From: Pseudanabaena sp. PCC 6802
GTDB lineage: Bacteria; Cyanobacteriota; Cyanobacteriia; Pseudanabaenales; Pseudanabaenaceae
Reading direction: 5' to 3'
Assembly: GCF_000332175.1 (NCBI RefSeq)
Contig: NZ_KB235914.1
Location: 1,371,966 to 1,435,965 of the forward strand
DNA: 64,000 nucleotides
Shown here piece after piece: positions 4,587 to 55,594 of the stretch (position 1 is its first letter; every line of letters begins with the position of its first letter). Made by a program: the position numbers and the translations under genes. Below the pieces are notes generated by a model. That model was not told where the DNA came from. It was given only the letters and a program-made list of their open reading frames with translations, and made no database searches.

Positions 4587-5292
4587 GTTTCATCGCAGCT
4601 TAAAGCTCTCCCTATGGTTTATGGTATGGCAGTTCTTAGATTGGAGCGATCGGGGGTAAGGGGTAGAACCCCTTCACCTCGCAAATAAATCTCTTTCTTA
4701 GTTGAAAGACGCTATAGCGCTCCAACTCTAATGAGTTGCAGATATCCTTCACCCCCCTTATTTCATCTCTTTGCTGGGATATGGAAAACCATAGCTGGAG
4801 CTATCGGTTTGGGCCGACGTTCCACGCACGCCCCCGCGATCCTTATGTGTAGGAGTAGAGGATTATATAAAAATGTCTCAGAACATCCCTAAACTAACGA
4901 AGCCCATTAGCTGACCTCATCAAAATGGGGGTAACCGTAAATATAAATCGAACCTTATCTCGGATAAAGGGAAGTTTATCGTACCCAACTTAAGTTGATA
5001 GTTACTTTTAGTAGAAACTTAGACTTGTAGCTACCCGTAGCTATTCGCTATCAACCCCTCCACACCTTTAACCTTTCTCGCTCTTAACTCTTAACCTTCT
5101 CATCCCAAACCCTGTTTATTTACCCCCTTTTACTCTAAGTCCGCCTTCGCGGACTTTGCTCGTGTAGCCGCGACCTTCAGTCGCCAGGCAACGTAGGGAT
5201 AATTGATGCGAATTTGGTATCAGTTATCTTAGGTATACGGCTAATATAACATATTCATATCGAAGTGTGTTTTACAGCACATTTTGCGATCG
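4587..5292. other. Intergenic region without recognisable gene
   Basis: About 700 bases between the acyl-CoA synthetase start and the hydrolase stop. It holds a decayed copy of the MITE-like family A (4625-4716) and a short perfect hairpin at 5137-5156 (AAGTCCGC, loop CTTC, GCGGACTT). The hairpin follows a pyrimidine-rich tract ending CCCCCTTTTA that is also found before the hairpin at 52185-52210. No open frame with convincing composition was found on either strand. The promoter of the minus-strand lipid operon should lie at the low end, near 4590-4700. Confidence 0.6.
4625..4716. repeat. Degenerate MITE-like element, family A
   Basis: Starts TATGGCAGTTCTTAGAT and ends GTTGAAAGACGCTATA, a worn version of the TATAGCGGTTTTCA...TGAAAACCGCTATA termini at 12874-12986 and 52211-52323. 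It keeps the second hairpin (AAGGGGTAGAACCCCTT) but has lost the GGGGGC/GCCCCC hairpin. Confidence 0.5.
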
Positions 5293-12873: not shown

Positions 12874-12986
12874 TATAGCGGTTCTCAGATCGGAAAGAGT
12901 AGGGGGTTTGGGGGCGTTGCCCCCAAGAAGGGGTGGAACCCCTTCACCCCAAAAATAAAACCCGTTCTCAAGTGAAAACCGCTATA
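12874..12986. mobile_element. MITE-like element, family A (113 bp)
   Basis: Terminal inverted repeats start TATAGCGGTTCTCAG on the left and, read inward from the right, TATAGCGGTTTTCAC. The interior holds two hairpins: GGGGGC-GTT-GCCCCC and AAGGGGTGGAACCCCTT. It has no coding capacity and TA at both ends. The termini match those of the IS630-type element at 53223-54244. Confidence 0.8.
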
Positions 12987-35741: not shown

Positions 35742-35853
35742 TATAGCCATGGACAGATCTGTTAGGACAGGGCGTGTCGGGTAACAGGGGCTGCGCCCCC
35801 ACGCAGGGGTTTCACCCCTGCACCCCGTCCTAAGCCTGTTGGCTATAGCTATA
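35742..35853. mobile_element. MITE-like element, family B
   Basis: Left end TATAGCCATGGACAGATCTG then TTAGGAC; right end, read inward, TATAGCTATAGCCAACAGGC then TTAGGAC. The core carries GGGGCTGCGCCCC and GCAGGGGTTTCACCCCTGC hairpins. It has no coding capacity. Confidence 0.72.
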
Positions 35854-35910
35854 TCGTCCTGGTTATCAACCCAAATCCGAGCAACCTGATACTGAAAGTT
35901 CTGATTTAGA

Positions 35911-36013
35911 AGCGATCGCTGGTTGACAGAAAACAAAGAGCGCGATCGCTCGGCAAATCTCGACAACTTCGCGAGCGATCGCTGGCTAACAGAAAACAAA
36001 GAGCGCGATCGCT
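35911..36013. repeat. Two 40-bp direct repeats bounded by HIP1 octamers
   Basis: Copies at 35911-35950 and 35974-36013 differ at two positions by eye. Each begins and ends with a GCGATCGC-containing palindrome and contains AGAAAACAAAGAG in the middle. Confidence 0.8.
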
Positions 36014-36024
36014 TGACTTGTATT

Positions 36025-36128
36025 TATAGCCGTAGACAGATCTATCAGGACAGGGGGTGTGGGGGCTGCGCCCCCATGCAGGGGTGAAACCCCTGCACCC
36101 CGTCCTAAGCCTATTGGCTATAGCTATA
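36025..36128. mobile_element. MITE-like element, family B
   Basis: Begins TATAGCCGTAGACAGATCTA then TCAGGAC and ends GTCCTAAGCC...GGCTATAGCTATA. The core has GGGGGCTGCGCCCCC and GCAGGGGTGAAACCCCTGC hairpins. Same orientation as 35742-35853. Confidence 0.75.
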
Positions 36129-36347
36129 TCTCTGTGCGATTAATTTTCTTCTCTTGGCGATCGCTTTGGTGCGATTGTTTCGTGGGCAGCGCCCACCCTA
36201 CTTCTAGCGATAATCTTAATTATCGCCAATTTATGCAGGAAAGCTATGGCTAACCTTACCGAGGGATTCATAAATAACGTCAACTTTTAGAAGTGTACGG
36301 GCTGATAGATAGGAAATATAAGTTATCCCTTTCTATGTCTCTAGCAA

Positions 36348-37148
36348 TTATTTCATGGGTTCCAAGCGAGCAAATCCGATCAACTGCAGGTGACCCTCAT
36401 TAACTTCAAACTTGAGGACGCGAGCAGTGATGCCACTGGATTCCAATTGTCGTAGATCGAGCAATCTATTCAGGGTGCGGACAAAAGCTTTCGTAATCTG
36501 ACTGGGGACATCTACGCCTTTGAAAAAAGCTTTCGGATCGGTAAGCTCCAGGCGCGTACCTCCCACCACATCCAGTTTGGTTTCGATCGCCACTACTAAA
36601 GGCTCAGCCCTGGTACCGCCAGAAGTTTTGATAATGGGCTGCACGGTTGCATTCAATCGCAGTCGATTGCCATCGAGGAAAGTAACTTCCGGATCGACCA
36701 GGTCAAACTCCTCCGCTTTTGTTCCACTAGCAATCGATGAGAGATCGGCTTTAATACCTTTAAAAGATTTTGCAATGGTTGGCGATCGCAGCGCCCGATT
36801 TAGATCCTCTGATTTTAAAACGACTCTGACAGCCGCTTGCAGTGGGCGCAGTAATTTTAGCTCTCCGGATCTAACGCGATCGGGATCGATACTGATGGAG
36901 TCAGTTTCCAGATCCAAACTATCGATGCGCAGAAATGGAAGGATATACAGCCCTCTACCCGCCATGCGGATGCGATCTACCTTGCCCTGAAGAATCTGAA
37001 AGTTGGGTGTATTATCTACTCTCACCTCTAATGTCTCGGCACTGACTAACTGACCGCGCAACAGATCGGCGGCGGTGCGATCGATGACGACACCGGGCGC
37101 GCCTGCCAGTCCTAATAAGCTCGTGAGTAATGCTGCTAGAAATTCCAT
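36348..37148 (-). CDS. DUF2993 (LmeA-like) lipid-binding domain protein
   Basis: 266 residues of the DUF2993 family, related to mycobacterial LmeA phospholipid-binding proteins. A short hydrophobic N-terminus (FLAALLTSLLGLAGAP) may act as a signal or anchor. The rest is beta-rich with the family pattern VRVDNTPNFQILQGKVDRIRMAGRG-type start, LDLETDSISID in the middle and RVLKFEVNEGHLQL near the end. It probably acts in or at a membrane compartment; its role is unknown. It starts 17 bases after folK ends, in the same direction, and is likely cotranscribed. Confidence 0.8.
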   Translation of the reverse strand: MEFLAALLTSLLGLAGAPGVVIDRTAADLLRGQLVSAETLEVRVDNTPNFQILQGKVDRIRMAGRGLYILPFLRIDSLDLETDSISIDPDRVRSGELKLLRPLQAAVRVVLKSEDLNRALRSPTIAKSFKGIKADLSSIASGTKAEEFDLVDPEVTFLDGNRLRLNATVQPIIKTSGGTRAEPLVVAIETKLDVVGGTRLELTDPKAFFKGVDVPSQITKAFVRTLNRLLDLRQLESSGITARVLKFEVNEGHLQLIGFARLEPMK

Positions 37149-37165
37149 ATTAGATGAGATAAGGA

Positions 37166-37765
37166 TTACTCTAAGGTATCTTCAGAATTTAACTTTTGTG
37201 GAGAGCAGATATATATATCGGGTGGATCGATCGCTAGTTTGCCGATCGTACTACCATTAATCGGGTGAATCCAGTCCGGCACGATTTCAGCTAATGGTAG
37301 CAGGACAAAGGCGCGATCGCACATGCGCGGGTGGGGAATCGTGAGATTTGGCGTATCGAGGACGAAATTTTCGTAGAGCAATATGTCCAGATCGAGCGTC
37401 CTGGCTCCCCAGCGTTCGCGCCGTTCGCGACCAAAATGTGCTTCGGTTGCCAGCAGTACTGCCAGCAAGCGATTGGGCATTAAGCTAGTCCGCAATAGCG
37501 CGCAGCCATTTATGTAATCCGGTTGAGTAACTGGACTGGCTTCGGTAGTTGAGCGATCTGAGTATAGTCCGGCGATCGCTTCAGTAACTGGTTTAGTGCG
37601 ATACCAGTGCGAAACTTCGACCACCTCAACCTCGGGGGTAGAGGCGAGATAGTCCAGTGCCGCTCGCACAATTGCGAGAGAATCGCCAAGGTTACTACCA
37701 AGCGCGATCGCGCACTGATATGACTTAATGTTCGAGCTTGTAGGGGAAGAAGTAGGCTTAACCAA
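37166..37765 (-). CDS. folK: 6-hydroxymethyl-7,8-dihydropterin pyrophosphokinase (HPPK)
   Basis: 199 residues. HPPK transfers pyrophosphate from ATP to 6-hydroxymethyl-dihydropterin in folate synthesis. Motifs are AIALGSNLGDS near residue 20, WGARTLDLDILLYE near 117 (the two Asp residues bind magnesium) and IPHPRMCDRAFVLLPLAEI near 140. An insertion around residues 58-80 (GLYSDRSTTEASPVTQ) makes it a little longer than the 160-residue norm. The only start upstream of the first strand is TTG at 37765, which is non-canonical. It is followed closely by the DUF2993 gene. Confidence 0.9.
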   Translation of the reverse strand: MVKPTSSPTSSNIKSYQCAIALGSNLGDSLAIVRAALDYLASTPEVEVVEVSHWYRTKPVTEAIAGLYSDRSTTEASPVTQPDYINGCALLRTSLMPNRLLAVLLATEAHFGRERRERWGARTLDLDILLYENFVLDTPNLTIPHPRMCDRAFVLLPLAEIVPDWIHPINGSTIGKLAIDPPDIYICSPQKLNSEDTLE

Positions 37766-37805
37766 GGTTGTTACGCGCTCCGAGACTTGAGCAAAAGTCT
37801 TTTAT

Positions 37806-37908
37806 ATAGCTACAGACAACAGGCTTAGGACGGGGTGCAGGGGTTTCACCCCTGCGTGGGGGCGCAGCCCCCACACCCCCTGTCCTAACAGATCTGTCTA
37901 TGGCTATA
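37806..37908. mobile_element. MITE-like element, family B (opposite orientation)
   Basis: Begins TATAGCTACAGACAACAGGC then TTAGGAC and ends GTCCTAACAGATCTG...TGGCTATA. It is inverted relative to 35742 and 36025, with the same double-hairpin core (GCAGGGGTTTCACCCCTGC then GGGGGCGCAGCCCCC). It lies between folK and the Uma2 gene. Confidence 0.75.
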
Positions 37909-38673: not shown

Positions 38674-38768
38674 TATAGCAATCCGAAATGATTTGTGAAA
38701 GCTAGCTAGCAGCGATCTGCGGTCGGCAGTCAGCGCAGAAATTTTACAATTCAGATAGGAGTGCTATA
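38674..38768. mobile_element. Possible third MITE-like element (95 bp)
   Basis: The left end TATAGCAATCCGAAATGATT and the right end read inward TATAGCACTCCTATCTGAAT agree at about 20 of the first 27 positions, and TA lies at both ends. It contains no reading frame and lies between murA and the Uma2 gene. Confidence 0.5.
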
Positions 38769-52210: not shown

Positions 52211-52323
52211 TATAGCGGTTTTCAGATGAAAACGAGAAGGGGGTTTGGGGGCGTTGCCCCCAAGAAGGGGTGAAACCCCTTCACCCCGTCAATAAAACCT
52301 GTTCTCAATTGAAAAACGCTATA
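52211..52323. mobile_element. MITE-like element, family A (113 bp)
   Basis: Left end TATAGCGGTTTTCAGATGA is identical over 19 bases to the IS630-type terminus at 53223. The right end, read inward, is TATAGCGTTTTTCAATTGAG. The core has GGGGGCGTTGCCCCC and AAGGGGTGAAACCCCTT hairpins. It has the same length as the copy at 12874-12986. Confidence 0.85.
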
Positions 52324-53028: not shown

Positions 53029-53268
53029 ATAATGCAGGTTAGATGGCACTTGTATGCTCTTGTGTGAGACGGGATAGCGAGAGGCAATGGTGGGAACTGT
53101 TAGCCTCTATGACGCTCAAGCCGACATTTCGCAGGCAGGGAAATAGAGGTAGGATATTTTTTGATGAGTTAGGACTTTCATCTTGAATATCCAAGTACAA
53201 GACTTGAATCATTTGGGGATCGTATAGCGGTTTTCAGATGAGAACAGCATGGTACGATCGTGAGAAAA

Positions 53269-53664
53269 ATGCCAAAAGGAATAACCATCTCCGAGGATTT
53301 ACGCGCACGAGTAGTGGCAGCCTATCAAAGTGGACAAACCACGATGCAGGCAGTAGCAGAGCGCTTTGCCGTCAAACGCGGTTGGGTAAACGAGATCGTG
53401 CAGAGGTATAAACGCACAGGCAACGTCGCCCCTAGTCCACGTGGCGGTGGAGCAATTGCTAAACTAGGCGAACAACACTACCCGGTGTTAGCAGACATTG
53501 TCGAACGGCAAAATGATGCCACATTAGCCGAAATCGCCGTCCAATTAGCCGAACGCACTGGCGTAAAAGTGAGCCCAGCGACAATTTGTCGAACTTTGCA
53601 GAAAATAGAGTTGAGTCGCAAAAAAAAACTGAGCACGCCGACAAACGAGATACAGAGGCAGTGA
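53269..53664 (+). CDS. IS630-type transposase, ORF A (DNA-binding part)
   Basis: 131 residues from ATG 53269; the frame is open from GTG 53260. Helix-turn-helix segments are [20 protein letters not shown] and [20 protein letters not shown], followed by a second winged-type motif near [14 protein letters not shown]. The protein reaches RKKK at the A9 tract and, without a shift, ends after about 11 unrelated codons ([11 protein letters not shown]). A -1 shift on the A9 tract joins it to ORF B to give the full transposase. Confidence 0.85.
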
Positions 53665-54233
53665 GAAACTTACGTCTGGAATACCAACTGCTGCTGTGGG
53701 CGATTGAGACTGATAACCTGGTATTTATTGATGAAGCCGGGGTAAACCTGAGCATGAGACGCACCCATGCCCGTGCAGCTAAAGGACAACGTGCTTATAG
53801 CAGCAAACCTGCACGTCGAGGTAAAAACCTGACTATGATTGCGGCACTGGCAATGTCTGGCATCATTGCCGCGTTGACGTTTCTCAGCAGCAATGACACA
53901 TTGACTTTCCTATTCTACGTGAGTGAGGTACTGGTACCACAGCTATGGGCAGGTGCGGTTGTGATTATGGATAATATCAATTTCCATGTTACTGATGAAG
54001 TGCGTCAGGCGATTGAGGATGCCGGTGCTACCTTAATCTTCCTGCCGACTTATTCACCGGAGTTATCGCCGATTGAATTGTTTTGGTCTAAGGTCAAAGC
54101 AATCCTGCGGTCTAGCGCTCCCAGAACCAAAGATGAGCTTGATGCTGCCATTACTGACGCTTTTAATGCTGTCTCTCATTCCGATATCTTAGGTTGGTTT
54201 GCTGAGTGTGATGCTCGTACTGTTCTCATCTGA
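53586..54233 (+). CDS. IS630-type transposase, ORF B (DDE catalytic part)
   Basis: Frame -1 relative to ORF A; real homology begins at the A9 tract (about 53620). DDE residues are Asp in [14 protein letters not shown], Asp in [10 protein letters not shown] and Glu in [14 protein letters not shown], in the usual IS630 spacing. The first 11 or so codons before the slip site are antecedent sequence only. The frame closes 11 bases before the right end of the element. Confidence 0.87.
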
Positions 54234-54265
54234 AAACCGCTATAGTGACCACATTAACCTTTCGC

Positions 54266-55338: not shown

Positions 55339-55453
55339 ACTTGCCAAACATCCAAAAAGAAACGTTTGGGCATTGCGATAATGATTCACTTACGCAGAGG
55401 TTAGAAGCTCCTGAGCAATCTATCAGGGTAATTGGTAGAATAGGCGGGTGCTA
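55339..55453. repeat. 115-bp direct repeat, copy 2
   Basis: Partner of 54266-54381. Its last TA coincides with the first TA of the family-A MITE beginning at 55452. Confidence 0.85.
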
Positions 55454-55594
55454 TAGCGGTTTTCAGATGAAAACGAAAAGGGGGGGTGGCGGCGTTGCCC
55501 CCAAGAAGGGGAGGCAGGGCGGTCTTGGGGGTTCCCCGCTAGAGCTACTGCCGCGTTCCACCCCTTCACCCCGTCAATAAAACCTGTTTTCAAT
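55452..55594. mobile_element. Damaged MITE-like element, family A
   Basis: The left end TATAGCGGTTTTCAGATGA is intact; the core GGCGGCGTTGCCCCC is followed by an insertion of about 50 bases within the second hairpin. The right terminus stops at CTGTTTTCAAT without the final GCTATA. It lies between the toxin-antitoxin pair and the DUF2330 gene. Confidence 0.65.

What the first reader, a model, noticed from the sequence alone, without database searches (positions are those of the whole stretch)
35742..37908. Two MITE-like families with different termini share one double-hairpin core
Family A (12874, 52211) ends in TATAGCGGTTTTCA and family B (35742, 36025, 37806) in TATAGC..AGACAGATCTG, yet both contain the same middle: a GGGGGC/GCCCCC hairpin, then an AGGGGTGAAACCCCT hairpin, then CACCCCGTC. 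Terminal repeats have been swapped around a conserved core, which suggests that the core itself is selected, perhaps as RNA structure.
Basis: seen in the sequence. Interest (0 to 1): 0.58.

Follow-up and report, generated by a model that had tools for sequence, protein, structure and literature searches.

The report
Shared hairpin core of cyanobacterial MITEs
Hundreds of tiny jumping DNA elements in this cyanobacterium, with different ends, carry the same two-hairpin middle, which recurs across the wider group, looks like an exchangeable module of the elements rather than a functional RNA of the cell, and in this species is itself invaded by a 44-base insert.

Summary
In an unbiased 864 kb, 126 paired-end elements were found (A 65, B 44, others C, D, E, F), 1.8% of the DNA. 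The same 49-nt core (outer stem plus two hairpins) lies in elements with unrelated ends and in 45 of 291 genomes of the class. An IS630 with family A's ends lies in the window at 53223-54244 and lacks the core. Ends do get swapped: A/F chimeras occur in both directions, and the halves of A assort almost freely. Pairing is kept by compensatory changes between genomes. The step to selected RNA is not supported: resident copies mutate as fast in stems as elsewhere, without compensation, and gene context shows no bias. Loops occur in both orientations, a footprint of template switching, which can itself mimic covariation. A 44-nt hairpin, X (129 copies), sits in hairpin 2's loop, always one way round. 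Best reading: modular MITEs with an exchangeable core, kept by template switching plus selection on propagation. New variant of a known kind.

The parts
12874..12986 (+). Family A MITE, 113 bp, core without insert
35742..35853 (+). Family B MITE, 112 bp; extra 8 bases before hairpin 1; hairpin-2 loop inverted relative to the next copy
36025..36128 (+). Family B MITE, 104 bp
   Evidence: RNA fold z -4.5
36053..36101 (+). Core of that copy: outer stem, hairpin 1, hairpin 2
   Evidence: alignment A2, structure counts
37805..37908 (-). Family B MITE, 104 bp
52211..52323 (+). Family A MITE, 113 bp
   Evidence: RNA fold z -5.6
52239..52287 (+). Core of that copy
   Evidence: alignment A2
53223..54244 (+). 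IS630 element with 25-bp perfect terminal repeats equal to family A's ends; no core inside; likely mobiliser of A (inference)
53260..53664 (+). First transposase frame of the IS630
53586..54233 (+). Second, overlapping transposase frame (NF033545 over cut-off); A9 run in the overlap suggests frameshifting (inference)
55452..55594 (+). Family A MITE with insert X in hairpin 2; right end lost
55512..55555 (+). X, the 44-nt hairpin inserted in the loop of hairpin 2

Best explanation
These are non-autonomous DNA transposons (MITEs) built from interchangeable parts. Family A's ends match an IS630-type element, whose transposase most likely moves them; the other families' ends come from elsewhere. 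The middle is a common G/C-rich cassette: an outer stem enclosing two hairpins. SHOWN: the same core in elements with unrelated ends; no core in the IS630 that shares A's ends; no free-standing core in the sample; chimeras with one A end and one F end in both directions; loops of both hairpins in both orientations; pairing kept across lineages but not in resident copies. INFERRED: the nearly identical hairpins of different elements act as switching points during replication, so that polymerase or recombination jumps exchange ends around the core, invert loops and re-copy one stem arm from the other. The stems are therefore partly self-maintaining; the rest is selection on copies that still transpose, perhaps because the folded core brings together the two ends of a ~110-bp element. 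That last benefit is a guess.
For: Core shared and ends not: mean z 9.6 for cores against 1.0 and 1.4 for left and right flanks over 45 family pairs. IS630 with A's ends and without core. 129 cores, 14 outside recognised pairs, all 14 decayed or edge-cut elements. Chimeras L107 and L120 (A left, F right) and L372 (F left, A right). Linkage r2 in A 0.37 and 0.25 within halves, 0.072 across the core. Reverse-complement loop pairs 9 against 1.5 expected, 0 of 100000 trials. Across genomes 94.2% of cells paired, 8 of 20 pairs with double change, 0 of 500 shuffles. Private mutation rates equal in stems and elsewhere. Template switching is known to give arm homogenisation and spacer inversion (PMC8604942).
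Against: Flanks of some families are related (B-H z 3.9 and 5.9, A-B right 5.1, D-K 3.5 and 3.8), so part of the diversity is plain divergence. Linkage across the core is weak but above the permuted mean (0.072 against 0.019), and B is uninformative. All three A/F chimeras carry X, so the switch point may be X rather than the core. No transposition, switching event or empty site was observed (one search gave tandem dimers only). No compensated pair was seen within a family, where template switching should also leave some. Parents of B, C, D and F were not found.
Confidence: 0.55

Rival explanations
1. All families are one old MITE lineage: the ends diverged quickly along with their transposases while the core changed slowly, and nothing was swapped.
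For: TATA-ended families show residual flank similarity (B-H, A-B, B-C, A-F right); all TATA families start TATA.
Against: D/K, E and I flanks are not detectably related to the TATA group; A/F chimeras in both directions; C-type left ends with a different middle, about 8 of 16; weak linkage across the core.
Confidence: 0.2
2. The core is itself a mobile hairpin pair that inserts into existing MITEs, REP-like or with a single-strand transposase.
For: Same core in unrelated elements; patchy spread over 33 of 130 genera; the IS630 with A's ends lacks it.
Against: No solo core among 129 in the sample; no element was found that is clearly a pre-insertion form: the one core-less B copy, L096, keeps a palindromic outer stem and reads as a deletion. 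RAYT/Y1 genes were not searched.
Confidence: 0.13
3. The core is conserved because it acts as an RNA structure useful to the cell or as a regulator of neighbouring genes.
For: Strong predicted RNA folds (z -4.5 and -5.6); covariation.
Against: Resident copies decay in stems as elsewhere, 53 broken and 0 compensated cells; G.U 21 against A.C 14, and 10 against 10; no neighbour-gene bias; no Rfam match at gathering score in the window except a tRNA.
Confidence: 0.07
4. Convergence: G/C-rich hairpins arose separately and look alike because they are made of G and C runs.
For: Runs of G and C dominate the core.
Against: Composition-preserving shuffles give core z 6.4 to 15.1 in all 45 pairs; single bases between and beside the stems (T before hairpin 1, A after it, CA before the last C run) are kept in 90% or more of rows.
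Confidence: 0.05

Closest known systems
MITEs moved by IS630/Tc1-mariner transposases (ISY100 of Synechocystis, PMC2170065, passages read; Nezha of cyanobacteria, seen only as a citation)
   Same: Short, many copies, terminal repeats shared with an IS630, TA at the ends, mostly intergenic
   Different: The middle is not IS-derived and is shared with elements of other end types
Type II MITEs without matching insertion sequence, Anabaena sp. 90 (PMC3542288, passages read)
   Same: Folded MITEs whose parent is not found, as for B, C, D and F here
   Different: No shared core between families was described in the passages read
Small dispersed repeats of Nostoc (Elhai 2008; not held; described from recall)
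   Same: Very small hairpin elements nested inside minitransposons, like X
   Different: Recalled as 21-27 nt; X is 44 nt and sits in one hairpin loop only
REP/REPIN elements (PMC3733652 and PMC3116915, passages read)
   Same: Hairpin pairs at high copy number, non-autonomous
   Different: No GTAG or CGTC tag of the described kind was established; the core is always inside terminal repeats
Template switching at inverted repeats (PMC8604942, PMC8794818; passages read)
   Same: Arm homogenisation and loop inversion
   Different: There in yeast genes and RNA genes; here in dispersed bacterial elements, with both loop orientations common

Membership tests
MITE | Short, no coding capacity, many copies | tested here: met
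   A 107-118 bp without X and 143-159 bp with it, B mostly 99-112 and 145-149 bp, 126 paired elements in 864 kb
MITE | Terminal inverted repeats | tested here: met
   Ends of A and B in alignment and in the window copies; imperfect in several families
MITE | Target-site duplication on insertion | tested here: inconclusive
   TATA or CTAG at both ends, but only tandem dimers as empty-site evidence
IS630-derived MITE (family A) | Ends shared with an IS630 of the same genome | tested here: met
   25-bp repeats at 53223 and 54244; NF033545 match
IS630-derived MITE (family A) | Internal sequence derived from the IS | tested here: not met
   The IS has no run of five G or C and no core
IS630-derived MITE (B, C, D, F) | Ends shared with an autonomous element | tested here: inconclusive
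   None found in the loci held or at the 25 D and 30 F ends looked at
Structured RNA | Compensatory changes in stems | tested here: met
   8 of 20 pairs, 32 cells, 0 of 500 shuffles; can also come from template switching
Structured RNA | Constraint on resident copies | tested here: not met
   Equal private mutation rates, no compensation within families
REP/REPIN | GTAG or CGTC tag at the hairpin foot and a RAYT gene | not tested
   No search for RAYT or Y1 genes was made
Small dispersed repeat (for X) | Length of 21-27 nt (recalled) | tested here: not met
   X is 44 nt

The most novel reading that the evidence does not exclude
The two-hairpin core is an assembly hinge used across the cyanobacteria: a cassette through which MITE families keep exchanging ends, so that new families arise by putting new ends on an old core. 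In this species the core has become the landing site of a 44-nt hairpin, X, that enters one hairpin loop in one orientation many times independently, which would put it among the smallest loop-specific mobile DNAs. Signs that X moves on its own: 129 copies, X differs by 0.029 between copies while its A hosts differ by 0.115, it is nearly unlinked to host sites (r2 at most 0.12), and the identical X is followed by different loop remnants in A, B and A/F elements.
Probability: 0.2. Interest if true: 0.75.

Novelty: new variant of a known kind. Interest (0 to 1): 0.55.

Why it matters
If right, it explains how MITE families without a matching insertion sequence can arise (end exchange around a shared core), and gives a natural system with hundreds of copies in which loop inversion and arm copying by template switching can be measured. 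It also warns that covariation in repeated hairpins is weak evidence for a functional RNA.

Tried and rejected
Host RNA function: rejected as best reading. Intrinsic terminator: by eye neither hairpin is followed by a T run in A or B; not scanned with the tool. Core derived from the IS630: rejected, the IS has no run of five G or C. Free-standing core: none among 129. Empty sites: only tandem dimers. Parents of B, C, D, F: not found. The DNA fold of the X-bearing window copy is unremarkable (z -1.5), as is the RNA fold of X alone (z -1.9) or with flanks (z -1.3). X elsewhere: in 1 of 291 class genomes, its own, and no exact 40-mer match in genome contigs, from which the own genome may be left out. 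Literature: ten searches listed no paper that by title or abstract describes a core shared between MITE families; Elhai 2008 was not held, so a description there cannot be excluded.

Counts to read with care: the 16 C-type left ends include one chance match beside the IS630 and some right ends of the same elements; 'about 8 of 16' is read from that listing. One of the 57 X copies (L108) is a deletion derivative joined to an A left end. X counts in A differ by one between scripts (24, 23); 23 is used. In one search one B element picked up by the X pattern carries no X and was dropped. The match lists were cut by the tool; totals given are those of its tallies, and the per-genome core counts are capped at 150 and 20. 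One search's 57 rows were chosen by best-scoring strand from 52 loci, five fewer of the weaker or duplicate hits being used, plus six cores of this genome.

Full report
What is there. The window belongs to an unnamed 5.62-Mb genome in 6 contigs. A further A copy, with an insert, lies at 55452-55594.

Sampling. A core profile found 140 cores at E up to 0.1, 129 below 1e-3. End-anchored search paired 126 elements: A 65, B 44, D 6, C 4, F 4, E 1, and two mixed pairs, of which A/F is a real chimera while the 207-bp C/B pair is two neighbouring elements. They make 1.76% of the sample; 121 of 126 are intergenic, 4 partial, 1 inside an ORF, and the arrangement of neighbouring genes follows the background. 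By proportion this is about 800 in the genome. Fourteen of the 129 cores were outside recognised pairs; all 14 look like decayed or edge-cut elements.

The core. It is 49 nt: outer stem GGGGT/ACCCC, hairpin 1, hairpin 2. On 33 cores of this genome 96.5% of cells pair and 4 of 20 pairs have double changes, chiefly one C-G/A-U exchange between B-like and A-like cores. The covariance model found the core in 10 of 39 genomes (own and relatives) at E up to 1e-3 and in 45 of 291 class genomes at 1e-5, 33 of 130 genera, patchily. On 57 cores from many genomes (54 distinct) 94.2% of cells pair, 8 of 20 pairs have double changes in 32 cells, and 0 of 500 shuffles reach this; I chose the rows by best-scoring strand, so the choice leans towards the structure. 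A pattern scan of named genomes stopped at its limit with 120 stretches; the 80 titles shown are all cyanobacteria.

Ends. Flanks of the core differ: TATA-ended types (A, B, C, F, H, M), CTAG-ended types (D, K), and types E and I. Over 45 pairs of ten family sequences that I wrote from these listings, core z averages 9.6 with all 45 above 3, against 1.0 (6 above 3) for left and 1.4 (10 above 3) for right flanks. So some TATA families are related to one another, and D to K, but at least four end groups look unrelated. The shuffles keep base composition only.

The mobiliser of A. Of 16 DDE_3 hits in the genome, the one in the window is an IS630 (NF033545) whose 25-bp perfect repeats at 53223 and 54244 match A's ends. 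Two overlapping frames near an A9 run suggest programmed frameshifting (inference). It has no core. ISY100, an IS630 element, needs only its transposase and duplicates TA (PMC2170065, passages read), so A is very likely moved by this IS, but that is inference. No parent was found for B, C, D or F.

Swapping. Two elements have an A left and an F right end (L107, L120) and one the reverse (L372); all three carry X. Within A (65 copies, X removed) mean r2 is 0.37 and 0.25 within the halves and 0.072 across the core, against a permuted mean of 0.019; it falls from 0.58 at 1-5 bp to 0.06 at 16-30 bp. B has too few sites to judge (its 3 left-right pairs average 0.25). About half of the C-type left ends continue into a quite different middle, one of them in the window near 38674.

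Selection or self-copying? In 39 A and 30 B copies without X, private mutations (in at most 2 copies) hit stems at 0.017 and 0.031 per site and copy, against 0.013-0.031 in ends and spacers; 53 stem cells are broken, 16 changed on one side to a standard pair, none compensated; C>T and G>A are 16 each. Shared variants, common in ends and loops, are nearly absent from stems. So resident copies are unconstrained, while the lineages that spread keep their stems. G.U is 21 against A.C 14 across genomes and 10 against 10 here, so no RNA strand is clearly favoured. Loops come as reverse complements of each other within one family, for example hairpin-2 loops GGA and TCC at 11 and 12 among A copies without X. 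There are 9 such pairs among the distinct loops against 1.5 expected, 0 of 100000 trials, while plain reversal gives 1 and plain complement 2. Template switching at inverted repeats produces arm homogenisation and spacer inversion (PMC8604942) and has been proposed to create and maintain hairpins (PMC8794818; passages read).

X. A 44-nt hairpin sits between GGGG and the loop remnant of hairpin 2. Its 40-mer has 129 copies with up to 3 mismatches; 122 places match the insert together with its hairpin-2 arms at the same tolerance. Of 57 copies with distinct flanks, 56 lie in hairpin 2 on both sides, one is a deletion derivative on the left, and all 57 have one orientation, although the arms of hairpin 2 are symmetric. 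X is in A, B and F elements, in 23 of 65 A. Copies of X differ by 0.029 while their A hosts differ by 0.115 (B: 0.028 and 0.046). X is nearly unlinked to host sites (r2 at most 0.12), and the same X sequence is followed by different loop remnants in A, B and A/F. Either X inserts repeatedly into this loop, or it is passed between cores by the same short switching; the single orientation and the correlation of X and host distances (0.59 in A, 0.55 in B) fit co-amplification after fewer events. It was found in 1 of 291 class genomes, its own.

Verdict. A real and more general feature than described: modular MITEs with a common two-hairpin core. Swapping of ends is supported; functional RNA is not.

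Noticed in passing
window 38674-38768 (approximate): A short element with C-type TATAGCAATC left end and a different middle without G/C core; similar ones at L071, L073, L084, L098, L102 and L108.
   Followed up: partly
L096:11496-11559: A 64-bp B element that has lost both hairpins; the outer stem has become a perfect palindrome GGACGGGGTACCCCGTCC, as a template switch would leave it.
   Followed up: no
window 4620-4740 (approximate): A decayed family A element with hairpin 2 still readable at 4658-4678.
   Followed up: no
G000, loci L171-L181: A second IS630 type in at least 11 near-identical copies with ends TATTGC..GCAATA; no MITE with these ends was looked for.
   Followed up: no
L084:5175-5283 and L106:3588-3793: Tandem D and C elements that share CTAG or TATA at the junction, as if one had inserted into the end of the other.
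   Followed up: no
L163 (G029), core at 1501-1550: Core with a D-type end on one side and an unrelated CTAG-bearing end on the other, possibly another end-swapped element.
   Followed up: no
L122, X copy at 1499: X and hairpin 2 partly duplicated in tandem within one element.
   Followed up: no
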